IMG/VR virus record: IMGVR_UViG_3300044648_000335
Span: 1 to 39,567 of that record
Origin: a virus
DNA: 39,567 bases
Reading direction: 5' to 3' (one strand)
The first letter of the stretch is position 1; the number at the start of each line of letters is the position of its first letter. A program made the translations under genes and the position numbers. Below, piece by piece: positions 1,606 to 36,550 of this stretch. The notes beneath the pieces were generated by a model, which was given only the letters and a program-made list of their open reading frames with translations, was not told the origin of the DNA and ran no database searches.

Positions 1606-1829
1606 GGCAGGCGCTCCTCAAGCTCGAACGCCGTCATGTGCGAGGTGGCGTAGATCAGCGAGCCGTCGTGAGCGATGACGACGCCTCCGCCACCGTCGCT
1701 CCACTGGACCGCGATCCCGGTCGGCGACTCCCACCGCAGGTCAAAGCCATCGGGGGCCGCGACGCGCTGGTAGAGGTCGTCGCGCAGCAGGCGCACGATC
1801 TCGCGCGTCTCCTCCGACGACCTAGCCAC
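1602..1829 (-). CDS. Hypothetical protein (75 aa), coupled to a 22-codon leader
   Basis: I chose GTG 1829 (VARSSEETREIVRLLRDD) because AGGAG sits 7 nt upstream. An ATG at 1835 is in frame but only 1 nt from that AGGAG. The start overlaps the leader stop by 8 nt (GTGGCTAG). The product ends FELEERLP. A central WESPTGIAVQWSDGGGG strand pattern suggests a small alpha/beta fold. It is the first full-size gene of the operon running off the left edge. Role unknown. Confidence 0.6.
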   Translation of the reverse strand: MARSSEETREIVRLLRDDLYQRVAAPDGFDLRWESPTGIAVQWSDGGGGVVIAHDGSLIYATSHMTAFELEERLP

Positions 1830-1890
1830 GTCCATGCTCCTGACCAACAGTCGGGGTCGGCGACTTCAAGCGGTGCTCTCGGTTTCTCAT
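1822..1890 (-). CDS. Leaderless 22-codon leader ORF
   Basis: The ATG at 1890 lies exactly 7 nt after the last base of the TACGGT -10 box, as in the three other promoters of this type. The frame begins MRNREHRLKSPTPTVG and ends after QEHGRG. Its C-terminal codons resemble the end of the gene at 39371-39567 (PTAGQEQGPA), also at DNA level, and both contain TGGTCAGGAGCA, which carries the SD for the next gene. It may load ribosomes on a leaderless mRNA and couple them to the next start. It could also be the remnant of a longer gene. Confidence 0.5.
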   Translation of the reverse strand: MRNREHRLKSPTPTVGQEHGRG

Positions 1891-1896
1891 CACTCC

Positions 1897-1925
1897 ACCG
1901 TACGCAATACCGAAGCCGAAAGCAA
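1897..1925 (-). promoter_or_regulatory. Leaderless promoter with TTCGG operator, left accessory operon
   Basis: On the minus strand TTGCTT (1925-1920), 17 nt starting TCGGCTTCGG, and TACGGT (1902-1897). Seven nt after the -10 lies the ATG at 1890. The spacer has a tandem TTCGG-CTTCGG. The element follows the stop of the early operon (1931) and would start the operon running to the left edge. Sigma-70-like architecture is seen; repressor control is inferred from the shared spacer. Confidence 0.75.
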
Positions 1926-1930
1926 GACAG

Positions 1931-4201: not shown

Positions 4202-4482
4202 TCGCTCGCCTTCCGGGCGTGCATCGCGCGCAGCCGGTCGCCAGCGGCCTGGCGCTGCTCGTCGCTCACCTTCCGCTTGCTGGAGCGGAACGACAGAAGC
4301 CCGGCCGGCAGCGAGAAGTCCGCCCACACCGACCCCTCGTGCACGCCCTCGTCGTTCAGCGTCGCGGCGGGGTTCTTCTTCAGCTTCGTGATCAGCGGCC
4401 GCTGCGCGGTCCAGATGCGCACCATGTCGTCTGCGTCCGAAGTCGTGATGACCGTCTCGCGTTCCGGAGCGGTAAGGCTCAT
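4198..4482 (-). CDS. Early hypothetical protein (94 aa)
   Basis: The frame starts MSLTAPERETVITTSDADDM and couples by ATGA overlap to the Cro-like gene upstream and the nuclease downstream. It contains VRIWTAQRPLITKLKKNPAAT and a basic C-terminal helix (SFRSSKRKVSDEQRQ). Small basic proteins of this kind follow Cro in many phage early operons. There are no catalytic motifs or membrane segments. Function unknown. Confidence 0.65.
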   Translation of the reverse strand: MSLTAPERETVITTSDADDMVRIWTAQRPLITKLKKNPAATLNDEGVHEGSVWADFSLPAGLLSFRSSKRKVSDEQRQAAGDRLRAMHARKASE

Positions 4483-4793
4483 CGGTCGATCCGCGTCGGG
4501 GTCTGCGGTCCGCCGCGGCGGACCTGGTCAGCGGACCACTCCGGCCACAGGTCGCTCTTCGTCGTCTTCAACGCACGCGCCAAACGGGCCATCAACTTCG
4601 GCGTGATCGCGGTCCGGCCGGACTCCCAAGCCCGGATGGTCTGCTCGGTGGTGCCGATCTTCTTCGCGAGCTCGGCCTGCGTGAGCTTGTGCTCCGCGCG
4701 GCCCTTTCTGACGCGGTCGCCGAACTCGAGGCGTCCCGGCGGCTGGGTCTCGATGCTCACGGCCGGGGCCGTGATGGTGTCAGTGGTATCCAT
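4479..4793 (-). CDS. Cro-like XRE family regulator
   Basis: This 104-residue protein is the first gene of the early lytic operon, so by phage logic it is the Cro-type partner. An XRE helix-turn-helix spans about residues 24-85 (LTQAELAKKIGTTEQTIRAW). It is about half identical by eye (33 of 63 positions) to the divergent protein at 4892-5389 through the same domain, including the recognition helix, so both probably bind the same operators. The ATG is 7 nt downstream of the -10 box, which predicts a leaderless mRNA. The N- and C-terminal tails look disordered. Confidence 0.8.
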   Translation of the reverse strand: MDTTDTITAPAVSIETQPPGRLEFGDRVRKGRAEHKLTQAELAKKIGTTEQTIRAWESGRTAITPKLMARLARALKTTKSDLWPEWSADQVRRGGPQTPTRIDR

Positions 4794-4799
4794 CTTTCC

Positions 4800-4828
4800 A
4801 GCGTATTCATAACCGAAGCCGAAAGCAA
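4800..4828 (-). promoter_or_regulatory. Early lytic promoter with operator (PR-like), leaderless
   Basis: On the minus strand TTGCTT (4828-4823), a 17-nt spacer starting TCGGCTTCGG, and TACGCT (4805-4800). The predicted start is at the A of the Cro-like ATG (4793). The TTCGG-CTTCGG tandem lies between -35 and -10, so a bound repressor would block RNA polymerase. Confidence 0.8.
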
Positions 4829-4846
4829 GACCGGTAGCTGCTCACG

Positions 4847-4882
4847 TTCGGTTTCGCTTTCTAGCGGATTTGCTGGTGTAAT
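4847..4882 (+). promoter_or_regulatory. Second operator and possible repressor promoter (PRM-like)
   Basis: TTCGGTTTCGCTTTC at 4847-4861 is the same motif as the promoter operators, here facing the repressor gene. A possible promoter is TTCGCT (4853-4858), 18 nt, TGTAAT (4877-4882), with a start near 4889, 3 nt from the ATG at 4892. The -35 overlaps the operator, so the repressor could regulate itself. The promoter call is weak; the motif is clear. Confidence 0.55.
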
Positions 4883-4891
4883 CAGCGAGAT

Positions 4892-5389
4892 ATGCCACCC
4901 GCAAACAGCGACGACCGGCCCCGCGCGACCGACGATGAACGCGCCGCATTCGGCGCCCGAGTCCGCTCCGCTAGGAAGGGCCTAAAGCTCACCCAGGAAG
5001 CACTCGCACGCCAAGTCGGCACCACCTCCCAAACGCTCCGTTCGTGGGAGAACGGAAGGTCCGGGATCACGGAGCCGATGATGGACGCGCTGACAAGAGC
5101 CCTCGGCGTACAAGCAGACGACCTTTGGGCCGGCTGGGACCCAACCCTTGCCAACTGGGGCGGCCGACGCACCGAGCGGGAACCCACACCGGCCCGCCTG
5201 GACCGGCTCGAGGCCGAGATCATCGCCCTCAGAGCGGAGCTGGTGGCAAAGGAGGTTCTCGAGCCCTCCCCCGCCTCAACGGCCAGCGAACTTACGACGC
5301 ATCTCGAGCGGCTTGCAGAGCAGGCCGATCAGCGAGACGACGCATCAACAGCACCGCCTTCCGCAGCTCCGCGGCGTCAGTCTCAGTGA
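4892..5389 (+). CDS. CI-like XRE immunity repressor
   Basis: This 165-residue protein is transcribed away from the early operon. An XRE domain covers residues about 20-82 (LTQEALARQVGTTSQTLRSW). It is followed by a predicted coiled coil (RLDRLEAEIIALRAELVAK) and a second helical stretch, which could mediate dimer formation. There is no S24 peptidase domain, so RecA-stimulated autocleavage of the lambda type is not expected. No SD is visible and the mRNA may be almost leaderless. Position, divergence and paralogy to the Cro-like protein support the repressor role. Its last 98 nt overlap an opposite-strand ORF. Confidence 0.75.
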   Translation: MPPANSDDRPRATDDERAAFGARVRSARKGLKLTQEALARQVGTTSQTLRSWENGRSGITEPMMDALTRALGVQADDLWAGWDPTLANWGGRRTEREPTPARLDRLEAEIIALRAELVAKEVLEPSPASTASELTTHLERLAEQADQRDDASTAPPSAAPRRQSQ

Positions 5390-6120: not shown

Positions 6121-6942
6121 TCACATCTCCACCGTCGGAGCACTGAGCTCGATGATCGGCTCCAAGTACTCCTCCGGGGCGATCGACGAGAAGTACCCCT
6201 GCGTCACGTCCAGGCGAGCGTGTCCGAGCTGACGCTGGATCGAGTGAACACCGACGCCGGCCTTCAACAACGTGACGGCGTGGGCGTGGCGAAGCTGGTG
6301 CGGCGCGAGGCGCTTGCGTGCACCGATGCTGTCGGCGAGTTTCTTCATCGCTCGCCGAACATCGGTGTGCGACCACTTGCGCGTTCCAGACGTCGGGCCG
6401 TGGATCACGCAGAAGACGGGGCCGATCGGCAGCGTCTTGCGGTATTCCATCCACGGCCCGAGCTTTCCCCAGGCCCACTTGTCCATGCCTGTGACGCGGT
6501 ACTTGTCGCCCTTGCCGTGGAGCACCTCAATCGTGCCGCGCTCAGCGTTGAGGTCGTTTTCCATGAGCGCCAGGGCCTCGCTAATGCGAAGGCCGGAGCG
6601 CCACAACAAGATCATGAGGGCATGGAGGCGCAGTCCCGTCGGGCCTGTCACGTCGATGCCCTTCAGCAACAAGTGCATCTCTTCGGCGTCGGGCGGCGTC
6701 GGGCGGTACTTGCGGCCCTTGCTCTTCGGGATGCGGCCTTTGTGAAAGCCGGGGTAGCACGCTTTCGCGAGCTTGTATCCGCGGGCGTCCAACAACAAGC
6801 CGTCCTCGACGCGCTCGGCGATCTCCAGGACGCTCGTCGGCGTGGGGCGCTTTGCGAACGAGTATTTGCCGCGGGTCGATGCCGACGGCAGCAAGGCGGG
6901 CGTGATCGTCTGCCCGGCATCGCTAGTGTGGCTGGTGCTCAT
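6121..6942 (-). CDS. int: Tyrosine recombinase / phage integrase
   Basis: The 273-residue protein has the full catalytic set: R119 (SGLRISEAL), K144 (HGKGDKYR), H215 and R218 (HQLRH), H241 (LGHARLDVTQ) and the nucleophile Y250. The region before the catalytic domain is only about 80 residues, so the arm- and core-binding parts are short for a phage integrase. The ATG at 6942 follows GAGGAA by 9 nt; the frame stays open upstream to 7452 but without a better start. It integrates the phage into the host chromosome. An operator-like site lies about 100 nt upstream. The attachment site was not identified. Confidence 0.92.
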   Translation of the reverse strand: MSTSHTSDAGQTITPALLPSASTRGKYSFAKRPTPTSVLEIAERVEDGLLLDARGYKLAKACYPGFHKGRIPKSKGRKYRPTPPDAEEMHLLLKGIDVTGPTGLRLHALMILLWRSGLRISEALALMENDLNAERGTIEVLHGKGDKYRVTGMDKWAWGKLGPWMEYRKTLPIGPVFCVIHGPTSGTRKWSHTDVRRAMKKLADSIGARKRLAPHQLRHAHAVTLLKAGVGVHSIQRQLGHARLDVTQGYFSSIAPEEYLEPIIELSAPTVEM

Positions 6943-7016: not shown

Positions 7017-7046
7017 GGCAGAATAGCAAACGAAAGCGAAAGCAAG
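7017..7046 (-). promoter_or_regulatory. Operator-like site upstream of the integrase
   Basis: On the minus strand TTGCTTTCGCTTTCG (7045-7031) matches the -35 plus spacer of the phage promoters. The box expected after 17 nt is TCTGCC, a poor -10, while TATTCT (7025-7020) is only 14 nt away. The downstream ATG is about 80 nt off and has its own SD. The operator is convincing; the promoter is uncertain. Repressor control of integrase is inferred. Confidence 0.5.
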
Positions 7047-8979: not shown

Positions 8980-10752
8980 TCAGAGGTGGAACGAAAGGCC
9001 GTCGAGGCCGATCGAGGCATTGGCCGCTCCGCCGGTCGAGATCGACACCTCGCCCGTTATTGGGTAGATCGTGAGGGCGCCGAACACGCCGTTGGCGACG
9101 CACGCCATCTGTGCGAGCGAGGACGGCCGGTAGCCGACGGGCAGCGTGAAGATGTTGCGTCCAGTGCCCGGGAACCCGGCGGGGGCCTTCGCGCTCCCCT
9201 TGAGCCACACGCGGTTCGTCGAGTCCTTGTGGAACCCGACCGCGTAGTACCCGCCGGCGTTGTCGGTGAACGAGTTCGTGAACGTCGGTGCGATCCACGT
9301 CGGCGGCGACGCCCCGGGCCCAGTCGATCCGGTGTTGCCCTGGATGCCCTGGGGCCCCTTGAGGTTCCCGCGCAGCGTCCACGTCGATACGCCGGTCTTC
9401 TCGTAGAAGTCGCCGGTCGTCGAGTTCAGCGACCAGTCGCCGACAATGCCCGTGCCCGACGCAGGGGCGCCGGCCTGCGAGAACCACTGGTCGCCCGGGG
9501 CGCCCGGGGCGCCTGTGTTGCCGGTCAGCCCGATGCTGCCCGTGGGGCCGGCGGGGCCGGTGTCGCCCGTGTCCCCCTTCGGGCCGGCCGGACCGGCCGG
9601 CCCTTGCGGCCCTGCCACGGTCGAAGCCGCGCCGGTCGCTCCCGTGTCCCCCTTGACGCCCTGTGGCCCCTGTGGCCCCTGGGGCCCGGTGTCTCCCGTG
9701 GGGCCCTGGGCGCCGGTGTTGCCGGTGTCGCCCTTCGGACCCTGTACGCCCTGCGGGCCTGCAGGACCGACGTCGCCCTCGGGGCCTTGCGGCCCGGCGC
9801 CCGACATGACCAGCACGACGAACTCGCCGGCGGCGGGCGGGGTGTCGAACGTGACGCGCACCGCGGACGTCGAGATCGCCTGCGCGGCCATCCCCGCATA
9901 CACCTGGGTGTAGGGACTCGCAGACCGACGAACCGTCACGCTCACCGCGCGCGTCGCCAACCCGTGCGTGACGTCAAAGACGGTCGCCGACCCGTTGCCG
10001 ATCGTCTGAGTGAACGCACCGCCGGCATCGCCGTGGTCGCCCTTCACGCCCTGCGGTCCCTGTTCGCCGGTGTCGCCCTTCACGCCCTGGGCGCCGGTCG
10101 AGCCCGTCAGGCCCGTCGGACCGATCGGCCCCTGCGGCCCCGCAGGACCGGCCGGGCCGATCTCGCCCTGCGGCCCGACGGGACCCGCTGGTCCCTGGTC
10201 TCCCGCCTCGCCGGTGCCGGTCGGTCCTTGGATGCCCTGGTCGCCCTTCGGGCCCTGCGGACCCTCGACGCCCTGCGGGCCGGGGATGCCGACCGGGCCC
10301 TGCGGGCCGACAGCACCGCCGGGGCCCACCGGGCCGAGGCCGCCGGTCTCGCCCTTCGGCCCAACGCCCCCTGTCGCACCCGTGTCGCCCTTCGGGCCCA
10401 GCGGCCCCTGCGGCCCCATAGGGCCTTGAGGCCCGGTCGGGCCGGCAGGCCCTATCGGGCCCGGAGGACCAGGCGTCCCAGGGTCCGTCTGCGACGGCAC
10501 CCACTCAGACAGCCACATCCGGCCCTGATCATCAGCAGCCACCAACGCCAGATCGTCAACGGCCGGGAGAACCGCACCGTTCGGAGCCCAATCCTTGATC
10601 AGATGACGCAGCTCTCGCGATTCGCTAAGCAGCCGAACCTCAACCGCATCAGCGAGCGACGCGGGCGGCGTAGTAACCACCGCGCGATGCTGCTCCGGGC
10701 GGCCCTCCGACCGGCGGCGGTCCCGAACTCGGCTGCTAGCGATGCCCGTCAC
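8980..10752 (-). CDS. Collagen-like tail fibre / receptor-binding protein
   Basis: This 590-residue protein has a helical N-terminus (about 1-90), probably the virion attachment part. A Gly-X-Y collagen-like block (about 92-245, many GPQGP, GPKGDTG) is followed by a beta-rich insert (about 246-318), a second collagen block (319-421), a short linker domain, a third short block and a C-terminal globular domain ([26 protein letters not shown]) typical of fibre tips. Collagen blocks form trimeric rods. GTG 10752 has GTGAGG 5 nt upstream; a later GTG near residue 25 is possible. It is the last gene of the late operon and ends at a hairpin. Confidence 0.85.
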
Positions 10753-16046: not shown

Positions 16047-16097
16047 GGCATCCCCCGAACGCCGGGTGCGCGGCCCCGTCCGCGTGCGCTAGCTAGA

Positions 16098-16117
16098 TCT
16101 GCCATTGCAATGGCAGA
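16098..16117. repeat. 20-bp perfect palindrome upstream of moron
   Basis: TCTGCCATTGCAATGGCAGA is perfectly self-complementary. It lies in the 131-nt divergent spacer between the gp25-like gene (start 16046) and the secreted moron (start 16178). No loop means a dimeric repressor site is more likely than an RNA hairpin. It is unrelated to the TTCGG operator family. Confidence 0.75.
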
Positions 16118-16165
16118 CTACGCTAGTCCCTAGACGTAAGCGGATCATGAGCCCAATGCTGGGCG

Positions 16166-16171
16166 TAAACT
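16166..16171 (+). promoter_or_regulatory. Leaderless -10 box of the secreted moron
   Basis: TAAACT ends exactly 7 nt before the ATG at 16178, the same geometry as the phage operon promoters. The hexamer 17 nt upstream (GATCAT, 16143-16148) is a poor -35. No SD is needed if the mRNA is leaderless. Confidence 0.5.
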
Positions 16172-16177
16172 CGCAGG

Positions 16178-24077: not shown

Positions 24078-24152
24078 TGCGGGTGCCTCTCGGCTAGCGG
24101 GGTCGTTAGCCATTAGCAGACTTCGCCAATGTACTAGCGAGATAGGACATCT

Positions 24153-30807: not shown

Positions 30808-30891
30808 GCACTTGTGGCGGAATGGGTAGACGCGGCCGGCTCAAGATCGGCAGCCTTTCGGGGCGTGAGGGTTCGATCCCCTCCAGGTGCA
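30808..30891 (+). tRNA. tRNA-Leu(CAA)
   Basis: Acceptor stem GCACTTG/CAGGTGC with A73 and no encoded CCA. Anticodon stem GCCGG/TCGGC with loop CTCAAGA, anticodon CAA (30842-30844), decodes UUG. A long variable arm and a T arm (GAGGG TTCGATC CCCTC) confirm a class II tRNA. It is on the plus strand, opposite to all neighbouring genes. TAGGTT (30796-30801) ends 7 nt before G1, so transcription could begin at the mature 5' end. UUG is normally rare in such GC-rich genomes. Confidence 0.93.
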
Positions 30892-30980: not shown

Positions 30981-31355
30981 TCAGGCGGAGCGCTGCGCAA
31001 CCCGCTCCGACGGCTTCAACTTCCGGCCGCCGGGCCTGCGTGACTCGACCCCGGCAAGCCGCAAACGCTTCAAGACGCTGACGTGACTCTTGAAACCCAT
31101 GGCCTTCGCGATCTCGTCAGTCGTGAGGCCCCGACGGTAGAGCGTCGCCACGGCGTGCAGTTCACTTGACGGGATGTAGACCCGCCCATGCTTTCCTTGC
31201 GGCCGCATCGGCACATCGCGGTGCCGGAGCGCGGCGCAAACGGTTGAGCGAGAACAGTGCAGGATCTCAGCGATCCGGTCCGTGGTGAGCTCTTCGATCG
31301 TGTAGAGCCACTCGGCTCGCTCGCCGATCTGGATGTAGGCGTGCTCGGCGGTCAT
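30981..31355 (-). CDS. Double helix-turn-helix DNA-binding protein (124 aa)
   Basis: The ATG at 31355 (MTAEHAYIQIGERAEWLYTI) overlaps the upstream stop as ATGA. It has two HTH units: TTDRIAEILHCSRSTVCAAL and LTTDEIAKAMGFKSHVSVLK, each followed by a basic stretch, with a VYIPSSELHAVATLYRRG linker. The tail is basic. It ends the operon just before the tRNA and the portal operon, so it is a good candidate for a late-gene activator or a DNA-packaging factor. No specific family recognised. Confidence 0.7.
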   Translation of the reverse strand: MTAEHAYIQIGERAEWLYTIEELTTDRIAEILHCSRSTVCAALRHRDVPMRPQGKHGRVYIPSSELHAVATLYRRGLTTDEIAKAMGFKSHVSVLKRLRLAGVESRRPGGRKLKPSERVAQRSA

Positions 31356-33151: not shown

Positions 33152-33180
33152 ACCCTAGTCCAAAGCGAAACCGAATGCAA
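33152..33180 (-). promoter_or_regulatory. Leaderless promoter with TTCGG operator, 33-kb operon
   Basis: TTGCAT (33180-33175), 17-nt spacer starting TCGGTTTCGCTTT, TAGGGT (33157-33152), ATG 7 nt later (33145). The spacer is the same as the operator at 4848-4860 before the repressor over 13 nt. Confidence 0.78.
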
Positions 33181-33185
33181 GATGG

Positions 33186-34664
33186 TCACCACGAGATCCT
33201 CGCCGTCGCCGACCCAACGACCGCCCGGGGCCGGCTCTCCTTCGAGTCGATGCCGTGCATTTTGATCGCGCCGTAGGCGACGGTGTCGACCATGTCGTCG
33301 TGCGCGCCGTTCGGGAACGCCTTCAGTTCGGCCTCGAACTCATCGAGCCACGGCGCGGCCTTCGGATGGAACACCTGGTGCGCTTCGTACCTCGCCACAG
33401 CATCCATGGCACGCGTCACCTTGTCCCCCACCGGCTGAAGGTCGTGGACCGGGATACCGCGGTTGCGCAGGGTCTTGACGACGCCGTAGCCGTGCCCGAA
33501 CTTCTCGACGTACAGCGACGGCTGTCCTTCTGCCTTCCACTCCCCTTCGATGAATTCGGGGACCTTCAGCAGGTCGAACTTGCGGCGCGCGACCTTCCAC
33601 ACCACGAGGTCCATGTCGGGGGTCCGCAGAAACGTCGTGACGACGGTGTAGTCCGCCGTTTCCTTCGTCGACGCTGCGATGTCTGACGTCTGGTACTTCA
33701 CGCACCGACCGACATCGAACGACCGAGCCGACCCGTCAAGATCGTGCAACCGGATGAACGGCTGGCCGCCCTCGTTGTGCGTCAGCGTCCAGTACCGGAA
33801 GTGCTCGTCCTTGAACAGCATTCCCTCGGCCGGAGACGGACGCTGCTGGTACATCGCGGACCACCAGTACGACCCAGAAGCGCGCCGGGTTCGCTCCCAT
33901 TCCTCCTCGGTCACGAGTTCGGGGCACAGCGACTCGCCAACGGGCCGCCCCAGGGCGTCGTCCGCTTCGGCGATGGCCGGCAGGTTCAGCACCTCCCACG
34001 TGTCGCCGCCGTCCTCCTGCGCTTGCAGCATCTGGCCGACGAGATCCTTCTCGTTCCAGCGCGTCATCACCACGATCACCGCACCAGGCGGGTTCGTTGG
34101 CGTCGCGGGCATCAGGCGTGTCCTGGCGGTCGACACCCACCAGTCCCATGCCTTTTCCTGCATCGTCGTCGACGCGGCGTCCTCGCTGTTCTTCACTGGG
34201 TCGTCGATGACCAGTAGATGCGCGCCCTTGCCGGTCAGGCCACCCCCGACGCCGGCGGTGACCATTACGCCTTGGCGGCCGTCGAGCGACCAGTTGTCCT
34301 TCGCGGCCGTTCCGTCTGACACGCGCACCCCGAACAGCTCGGGCCCGTACGCCTCAAGCAGGTCGCGGGCTTTGCCGCCCCAGGTCGACGCAAACTTCGC
34401 TTCGTACGAAGCAAGCATCACCTGGCGGTCCGGGAAGCGCCCCATGTACCACGCCGGGAGGTACCGCGAGATCGTTTCCGACTTCCCGTGCCGCGGCGGC
34501 ATCGTCACGATCAACCGCGACACCTCCCCCGCTGCGACACGCATCAGCCAATCGTTCAGCAGGATCAGGTGCTCATACGGCACCCACCGCCCGAACGACG
34601 TGACGTGCGCGAACCCCGCGGGACTACTCGCCGCTAGAAGCCGGTCGACGTCGGAGAAGGTCAC
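33186..34664 (-). CDS. terL: Terminase large subunit
   Basis: The 492-residue protein has an ATPase N-terminal half with Walker A PPRHGKSE (about residues 57-63, K61) and Walker B LLVIDDP (D154, D155). The RNase H-like nuclease half shows SDIAASTKETADYTVV and the late acidic HDDMVDTVAYG. It cuts and packages phage DNA into the prohead. The GTG start overlaps terS by 41 nt. The gene ends just before the operator promoter at 33180. Confidence 0.93.
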   Translation of the reverse strand: MTFSDVDRLLAASSPAGFAHVTSFGRWVPYEHLILLNDWLMRVAAGEVSRLIVTMPPRHGKSETISRYLPAWYMGRFPDRQVMLASYEAKFASTWGGKARDLLEAYGPELFGVRVSDGTAAKDNWSLDGRQGVMVTAGVGGGLTGKGAHLLVIDDPVKNSEDAASTTMQEKAWDWWVSTARTRLMPATPTNPPGAVIVVMTRWNEKDLVGQMLQAQEDGGDTWEVLNLPAIAEADDALGRPVGESLCPELVTEEEWERTRRASGSYWWSAMYQQRPSPAEGMLFKDEHFRYWTLTHNEGGQPFIRLHDLDGSARSFDVGRCVKYQTSDIAASTKETADYTVVTTFLRTPDMDLVVWKVARRKFDLLKVPEFIEGEWKAEGQPSLYVEKFGHGYGVVKTLRNRGIPVHDLQPVGDKVTRAMDAVARYEAHQVFHPKAAPWLDEFEAELKAFPNGAHDDMVDTVAYGAIKMHGIDSKESRPRAVVGSATARISW

Positions 34665-36262: not shown

Positions 36263-36501
36263 GTGTAGTCCTCAACGGAGTTGGTCGTGTCGACTCTGAA
36301 CGGGCCGTTCGCGCCGTACTTGACGAGCACATCGATCAGCGCGAACGGCTTGAACTGCGTCCCAGACCCGTCGCTGTAGGAGACCGCTTTCCGAAGCTCG
36401 TCGGCCATCTGGCGGTTGACGTCGAGCGGGGCCGCCGCCTCCTCCGGAAGCGGCCCGTCCGGCTCGGGAACCAATCGATATCGCGGCCTGCCGTCGGTCA
36501 T
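36259..36501 (-). CDS. First gene of the terminase operon (80 aa), leaderless
   Basis: ATG 36501 lies 7 nt after the TAAGGT -10 box. The protein starts MTDGRPRYRLVPEPDGPLPE and has a helical middle (VNRQMADELRKAVSYSDGSG), then FALIDVLVKYGANGPFRV. GTGA overlap with the next gene. Role unknown. Confidence 0.6.
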   Translation of the reverse strand: MTDGRPRYRLVPEPDGPLPEEAAAPLDVNRQMADELRKAVSYSDGSGTQFKPFALIDVLVKYGANGPFRVDTTNSVEDYT

Positions 36502-36507
36502 TCTTCC

Positions 36508-36536
36508 ACCTTATTCGTAAGCGAAAGCGAACGCAA
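36508..36536 (-). promoter_or_regulatory. Leaderless promoter with TTCGC operator, terminase operon
   Basis: TTGCGT (36536-36531), 17-nt spacer starting TCGCTTTCGCTT, TAAGGT (36513-36508), ATG 7 nt on (36501). The spacer carries the tandem TTCGC-TTTCGC form of the operator. It would drive 36501 through terL. Confidence 0.78.
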
Positions 36537-36550
36537 GCCGCACCGCCGAG

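What the first reader, a model, noticed from the sequence alone, without database searches (positions are those of the whole stretch)
4794..4891. A phage-wide operator family linking at least five transcription units
Seen: four minus-strand promoters (4800-4828, 1897-1925, 33152-33180, 36508-36536) share TTGCNT, then exactly 17 nt beginning TCG(G/C)(C/T)TTCG, then TANGNT. The same TTCGG/TTTCG tandem occurs at 4847-4861 facing the repressor gene and at 7031-7045 before the integrase. I found no comparable copies elsewhere. Known: temperate phages may use dispersed repressor sites, such as the stoperators of cluster A mycobacteriophages. Inference: here the sites lie inside promoters, so one repressor would silence early, accessory, terminase and 33-kb operons directly.
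Basis: partly seen in the sequence, partly recalled or inferred. Interest (0 to 1): 0.88.

Follow-up and report, generated by a model that had tools for sequence, protein, structure and literature searches.

The report
Dispersed operator-like motif in phage promoters
A temperate phage, probably of a Patulibacter-like soil actinobacterium, repeats one short asymmetric DNA word in the promoters of its early, accessory, packaging and integrase units and in front of its repressor gene; this looks like one repressor controlling many promoters at once, a strategy known from other phages but here with an unusual, non-palindromic site.

Summary
The motif is real and far beyond chance. CTTGCNTTCGSYTTCG occurs exactly five times, all on the minus strand, and a sixth copy with a degraded first unit faces the repressor gene. 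All six lie in the ~5% of the contig that is non-coding. Each ranks first in a leave-one-out scan, and 300 shuffles gave no copy. Four copies form TTGCNT-17-TANGNT-6-ATG, a leaderless promoter layout that occurs nowhere else in the window. Two corrections: the 10-base core also occurs three times in genes, at chance level, and the late structural operons do not carry the motif.

Best explanation: dispersed operators for two divergent XRE proteins. These are paralogues (46% identity, near-identical recognition helices). Bound repressor would block four or five promoters, shut head and tail genes off only indirectly, and possibly regulate itself. Binding is not shown. The motif promoter was not found elsewhere in IMG/VR or in 399 sampled Thermoleophilia genomes, so there is no comparative proof. 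In logic it resembles P1 C1, SPbeta MrpR/SPBRE and L5 operators; the repressor type and the A-free, 6-bp-tandem site differ.

The parts
4811..4829 (-). motif copy CTTGCTTTCGGCTTCGGTT in the early promoter of the Cro-like XRE gene
   Evidence: exact match; PWM 32.4, leave-one-out rank 1
4841..4859 (+). motif copy CTCACGTTCGGTTTCGCTT facing the repressor gene; first unit degraded
   Evidence: PWM 29.0, leave-one-out rank 1; core centred about 40 bp upstream of the start codon at 4892
1908..1926 (-). motif copy CTTGCTTTCGGCTTCGGTA in the promoter of the accessory operon
7028..7046 (-). motif copy CTTGCTTTCGCTTTCGTTT upstream of the integrase gene
   Evidence: a -10-like TATTCT at 7020-7025 lies 5 nt after the second TTCG, against 8 nt in the four leaderless promoters
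33163..33181 (-). motif copy CTTGCATTCGGTTTCGCTT in the promoter of the cassette between terminase and portal
36519..36537 (-). motif copy CTTGCGTTCGCTTTCGCTT in the promoter of the terminase operon
4800..4828 (-). leaderless promoter TTGCTT-17-TACGCT, ATG 6 nt later (early operon)
1897..1925 (-). leaderless promoter TTGCTT-17-TACGGT, ATG 6 nt later, opening a 22-codon ORF
33152..33180 (-). leaderless promoter TTGCAT-17-TAGGGT, ATG 6 nt later
36508..36536 (-). leaderless promoter TTGCGT-17-TAAGGT, ATG 6 nt later
4892..5389 (+). XRE repressor candidate (CI-like), 165 aa: HTH plus predicted C-terminal helix, no S24 peptidase domain found
   Evidence: Pfam HTH_3 8.6e-13; low-confidence AlphaFold helix 100-123; 434 repressor relative in the PDB
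4479..4793 (-). Cro-like XRE paralogue, 104 aa, first gene of the early operon
   Evidence: Pfam HTH_3 4e-15; 46% identity over 89 aa to the CI-like protein
6121..6942 (-). tyrosine integrase
   Evidence: Pfam Phage_integrase 4.4e-24
33186..34664 (-). terminase large subunit, in the operon that starts at 36501
   Evidence: PHROG 38, 2.7e-98
30981..31355 (-). 124-aa protein with HTH_23 and a second predicted HTH, last gene of the motif-driven cassette: candidate late activator
   Evidence: Pfam HTH_23 1.8e-9, Sigma70_r4_2 4.5e-6; low-confidence model with two helix groups

Best explanation
The six copies are operators of one immunity system. The CI-like XRE protein (4892-5389), and probably its Cro-like paralogue (4479-4793), bind the asymmetric site, which fills the region from the -35 position into the spacer of four or five promoters. 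Binding would keep RNA polymerase off the early, accessory, terminase, cassette and integrase promoters. The plus copy sits about 40 bp upstream of a possible leaderless start of the repressor gene, where a bound regulator can activate or repress, so the repressor probably regulates itself. Head and tail genes lack the motif and would be silenced indirectly, perhaps because the cassette's last gene is a late activator. Shown: sequence, statistics, placement, paralogy. Inferred: protein binding, direction of the effect, autoregulation, late cascade.
For: Six sites, all intergenic, clear score gap. Motif orientation follows transcription at all six. A general leaderless-promoter pattern finds exactly the four motif promoters in the window (0.72 expected in shuffles, max 5) and none in the syntenic prophage G001. 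TANNNT with its first T 12 bp before the ATG is the leaderless signal described for Actinobacteria (PMC3160421; PMC3898074). Two copies lie in the 98-bp divergent intergene of the XRE pair. The two XREs share GTTxQT[LI]RxWExGR and homology down to TPxRxDR, where the Cro-like one ends, so both plausibly read the same site. At the integrase the motif lies 3 bp closer to the -10-like box, and at the repressor it lacks TTGC; this fits an operator better than a fixed-spacing sigma element. Absence of the strict motif promoter from viral contigs and 399 Thermoleophilia genomes argues for a phage-specific reader. The repressor genes of G001 are different proteins, and G001 lacks the motif.
Against: No binding or expression data. 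The consensus strand has no invariant A, so the site cannot be a palindrome, whereas the 434/P22-like XRE repressors these proteins resemble bind palindromes as dimers. Only one genome carries the family. The nearest homologous repressor (44%, G392 contig C501) has CTTGC and pyrimidine-rich DNA in its divergent intergene, but similarity over that region is not significant (p 0.74; single promoters 0.003 to 0.79). The sigma-70 consensus scan scores no promoter in either region.
Confidence: 0.66

Rival explanations
1. The motif is a promoter element read by a phage-specific activator or sigma-like factor that switches these units on together; the TTCG repeats replace a normal -35.
For: Identical 17/6 geometry at four promoters; TTGCNT is a poor sigma-A -35 and the consensus scan scores none of them; the double-HTH protein at 30981-31355 has weak sigma region 4 matches.
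Against: Placement differs at the integrase and the repressor; the early promoter of the first regulator must fire before any phage factor exists; no sigma factor was recognised among the proteins I scanned (not all proteins of the window were scanned).
Confidence: 0.15
2. Another phage DNA-binding protein reads the site, for example the excisionase-like HTH_17 protein at 1931-2242, whose class is known to bind short direct repeats (own knowledge).
For: The site is a direct repeat; HTH_17 3.5e-5 and PHROG 66 'excisionase and transcriptional regulator' 2.3e-7.
Against: Two copies lie between the XRE genes; excisionase sites are expected at the attachment site, not at terminase and accessory promoters.
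Confidence: 0.1
3. A host regulator, such as a direct-repeat LexA-type repressor, reads the site and couples these units to host state.
For: Direct-repeat operators exist for some host regulators (own knowledge).
Against: The strict promoter pattern is absent from 399 Thermoleophilia genomes, and the P. minatonensis genome has no exact copy of the 15-mer and only 13 one-mismatch copies in 5.5 Mb; the true host is unknown.
Confidence: 0.05
4. Chance or compositional repetition of TTCG in GC-rich DNA.
For: Three core copies inside genes are at chance level.
Against: 300 shuffles gave no full copy; all six are intergenic with fixed promoter geometry at four.
Confidence: 0.01

Closest known systems
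Phage P1 C1 repressor and its operators
   Same: One repressor, many dispersed asymmetric operators (22 sites, 17-bp consensus), and control of Lpa, the late-promoter activator (PMC8546580), the same logic as proposed here.
   Different: The P1 consensus ATTGCTCTAATAAATTT is unrelated; here the candidate is an XRE protein, the site is a 6-bp tandem, and there are six sites.
SPbeta MrpR (YopR) and SPBRE
   Same: A 15-bp repeated element in intergenic promoter regions across a prophage, first noticed in silico and later shown to be the master repressor site (PMC10516654).
   Different: MrpR has a tyrosine-recombinase fold; here the candidates are XRE proteins, and the promoters look leaderless.
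Cluster A mycobacteriophage (L5, Bxb1) operators and stoperators
   Same: Asymmetric repressor sites, mostly intergenic and oriented with transcription (PMC9283540, PMC3029335).
   Different: 24-34 copies of a 13-mer, many away from promoters and thought to stop elongation; here six copies, all at unit starts; the L5-type repressor has a second DNA-binding (Stoperator) domain.
Lambda/434 CI-Cro switch
   Same: Divergent repressor and Cro-like genes with shared sites between them; HTH similar to 434 CI.
   Different: 434 and lambda operators are palindromic and confined to the immunity region (own knowledge); here sites are non-palindromic and dispersed; no self-cleavage domain found.

Membership tests
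Cluster A stoperator system | Many asymmetric sites oriented with transcription | tested here: met
   six asymmetric sites without invariant A, all oriented with transcription
Cluster A stoperator system | Sites away from promoters, at gene ends within operons | tested here: not met
   PWM scan: no site above 15.8 outside the six unit-start regions
Cluster A stoperator system | Repressor with N-terminal HTH plus Stoperator domain | tested here: inconclusive
   only an HTH was recognised; the C-terminal model has low confidence
P1 C1-like dispersed operators | One repressor binds many asymmetric operators at promoters | not testable with these tools
   arrangement seen, binding not testable
P1 C1-like dispersed operators | Operator matches ATTGCTCTAATAAATTT | tested here: not met
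   direct comparison by eye with the consensus quoted in PMC8546580
SPBRE/MrpR | Repressor with tyrosine-recombinase fold | not tested
   both immunity-region regulators are XRE; the integrase at 6121-6942 was not assessed as a repressor
Lambda-type CI/Cro switch | Divergent HTH repressor and Cro-like genes with repeated sites in between | tested here: met
   paralogous XRE genes with two motif copies in the 98-bp intergene; shared binding is inferred
Lambda-type CI/Cro switch | Palindromic operators | tested here: not met
   the consensus strand lacks invariant A, so its T positions cannot pair
Lambda-type CI/Cro switch | LexA/S24 self-cleavage domain in the repressor | tested here: not met
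   no Peptidase_S24 match up to E 0.1
Actinobacterial leaderless promoters | TANNNT with first T about 12 bp before the start codon | tested here: met
   four promoters, exactly 12 bp; start sites themselves not measured

The most novel reading that the evidence does not exclude
A pair of XRE paralogues, a full repressor and a short version without its C-terminal helix, read a non-palindromic array of 6-bp units at every non-late promoter of the phage, so lysis and lysogeny are decided by competition of the two at six dispersed sites, four of them in leaderless promoters, rather than at one switch.
Probability: 0.3. Interest if true: 0.62.

Novelty: new variant of a known kind. Interest (0 to 1): 0.44.

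Why it matters
If true, it adds a phage related to a Patulibacter prophage, a group for which the library search found no phage paper, to the small set with genome-dispersed operators, and gives an XRE repressor pair that must read a non-palindromic site. It would show how one repressor can silence several units at promoters while late genes are left to a cascade. The sites are few, well defined and easy to test.

Tried and rejected
Relatives of either XRE protein in viral contigs by single sequence: none; by two-row alignment: 80 loci of general XRE proteins, none with the motif family. A loose motif scan of viral contigs returned many loci with one match each; the best-scoring ones share one recurrent AT-rich sequence, probably coding, and were set aside. 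A strict scan with the promoter and ATG returned none. An unsupervised repeat search over whole genomes is swamped by coding repeats and was replaced by gene calling plus PWM. G001 (P. minatonensis prophage, 61% TerL) was tested for the same family: no; it has two inverted CATTACGCG copies, both in its immunity intergene. Operator conservation in G392 contig C501 was not significant. Weak Cro-like hits in other genomes (L166-L169) showed no similar site. AlphaFold models had low confidence (mean pLDDT 52 and 58), so no fold search was made. A palindromic reading was rejected because the consensus strand has no invariant A.

Full report
Observation. TTGCNTTCGSYTTCG has five exact copies on the minus strand; the strict pattern is not produced in 300 dinucleotide-preserving shuffles. 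A sixth copy on the plus strand faces the XRE repressor gene and keeps TTCGGTTTCGCTT but has CTCACG for CTTGCN. The extended consensus is CTTGCNTTCGSYTTCGSTT with an invariant leading C. A position matrix separates the six (29.0-33.5 bits) from everything else (next 15.8, inside the portal gene), and each copy is recovered at rank 1 when left out. My gene calls cover 94.6% of the window, yet all six sites lie between genes. The short core also occurs in three coding places, which synonymous-codon shuffles explain.

Promoter anatomy. Four copies are built into TTGCNT-17-TANGNT-6-ATG. A general leaderless-promoter pattern (TTG, 15-19 nt spacer, TANNNT, 4-8 nt, ATG or GTG) finds exactly these four in the window and none in the related prophage G001; 0.72 matches are expected in shuffles, with a maximum of 5. 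The first T of TANNNT lies 12 bp before the start codon, the position reported for leaderless genes, which are frequent in Actinobacteria (PMC3160421; PMC3898074). At the integrase the full motif is present but a -10-like TATTCT comes 5 nt after the second TTCG instead of 8, and the gene start is about 80 nt downstream. At the repressor the core is centred about 40 bp upstream of the ATG, next to a weak TAATCA box. A motif whose distance to the -10 varies, and which occurs once without TTGC, fits an operator better than a sigma-factor element.

Which units. On the minus strand the sites head the early operon (4793 downwards), the accessory operon (from 1890), the terminase operon (36501 to 33186) and a cassette of small genes (33145 to 30981) that lies between terminase and portal; in G001 portal follows terminase directly. 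The portal, capsid and tail units carry no motif. G001 has three near-identical late promoter-like sites (GAAATANCNTCCG, then GCTAGTACNCT) at the starts of late units, and the window has one near match at 24128-24139. The late genes therefore seem to belong to another promoter class. The cassette ends with a 124-aa protein with one clear and one predicted HTH, a candidate late activator. P1 has this logic: C1 controls lpa, whose product activates the late promoter (PMC8546580).

Who binds. The intergene between the two XRE genes holds two copies. The two proteins are paralogues: 46% identity over 89 residues, the same GTTxQT[LI]RxWExGR recognition region, and homology down to TPxRxDR, where the 104-aa protein ends and the 165-aa protein continues into a predicted helix. 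They probably read the same sequence. The repressor has no recognised self-cleavage domain. The difficulty is symmetry: the motif strand has no invariant A, so it is not a palindrome but three units of 6 bp (CTTGCN, TTCGSY, TTCGST), whereas the 434 and P22 repressors they resemble bind palindromes as dimers (own knowledge). Monomer binding, as shown for the asymmetric sites of cluster A repressors (PMC9283540), or tandem binding is possible but untested; an excisionase-like HTH_17 protein (1931-2242) remains a rival.

Relatives. The closest terminase belongs to a Patulibacter minatonensis prophage (61%), which has other repressors and lacks the motif. A contig from another genome of the same order (G392 C501) is closer in several genes (late-region proteins up to 93%, SSB 84%, integrase 58%) and has a 44% homologous repressor. 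Its divergent intergene has leaderless promoter layouts on both sides and CTTGC followed by pyrimidine-rich DNA, but the similarity is not significant, and the contig lacks the terminase region. The strict motif promoter is absent from viral contigs and 399 Thermoleophilia genomes. The family therefore rests on a single genome. The host of the window phage itself is not known; Patulibacter-like is an inference from these relatives.

Verdict. The operator interpretation is the most likely (0.66) but unproven; the extent of the regulon must be cut back to the non-late units. As a strategy it is known (P1 C1, SPbeta SPBRE, cluster A operators). The XRE paralogue pair with a non-palindromic tandem site inside leaderless promoters is a variant worth testing.

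Noticed in passing
G001 (L154-L156) 18499, 26705 and 38943, minus strand; window 24128-24139 minus: A second promoter-like family, GAAATANCNTCCG-N4/5-GCTAGTACNCT, three near-identical copies before late units in the P. minatonensis prophage, one near match in the window: possible late promoter class.
   Followed up: partly
window 30808-30891 +: tRNA-Leu (CAA) on the plus strand in the 243-bp gap before the portal gene, antisense to the late operon.
   Followed up: no
window 1822-1890 -: The accessory promoter opens a 22-codon leaderless ORF that overlaps the start of the next gene (ATG at 1835): possible leader peptide with translational coupling.
   Followed up: no
window 8980-10752 -: 590-aa protein encoded by collagen-like GC-rich 9-bp repeats, likely a tail fibre or similar.
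   Followed up: no
window 16047-16177: A 20-bp perfect inverted repeat TCTGCCATTGCAATGGCAGA in the intergenic gap upstream of a late gene.
   Followed up: no
L255 18404-18741 (G392 C501): Dense array of CCTTCGAAGG-like repeats just downstream of the homologous repressor gene.
   Followed up: no
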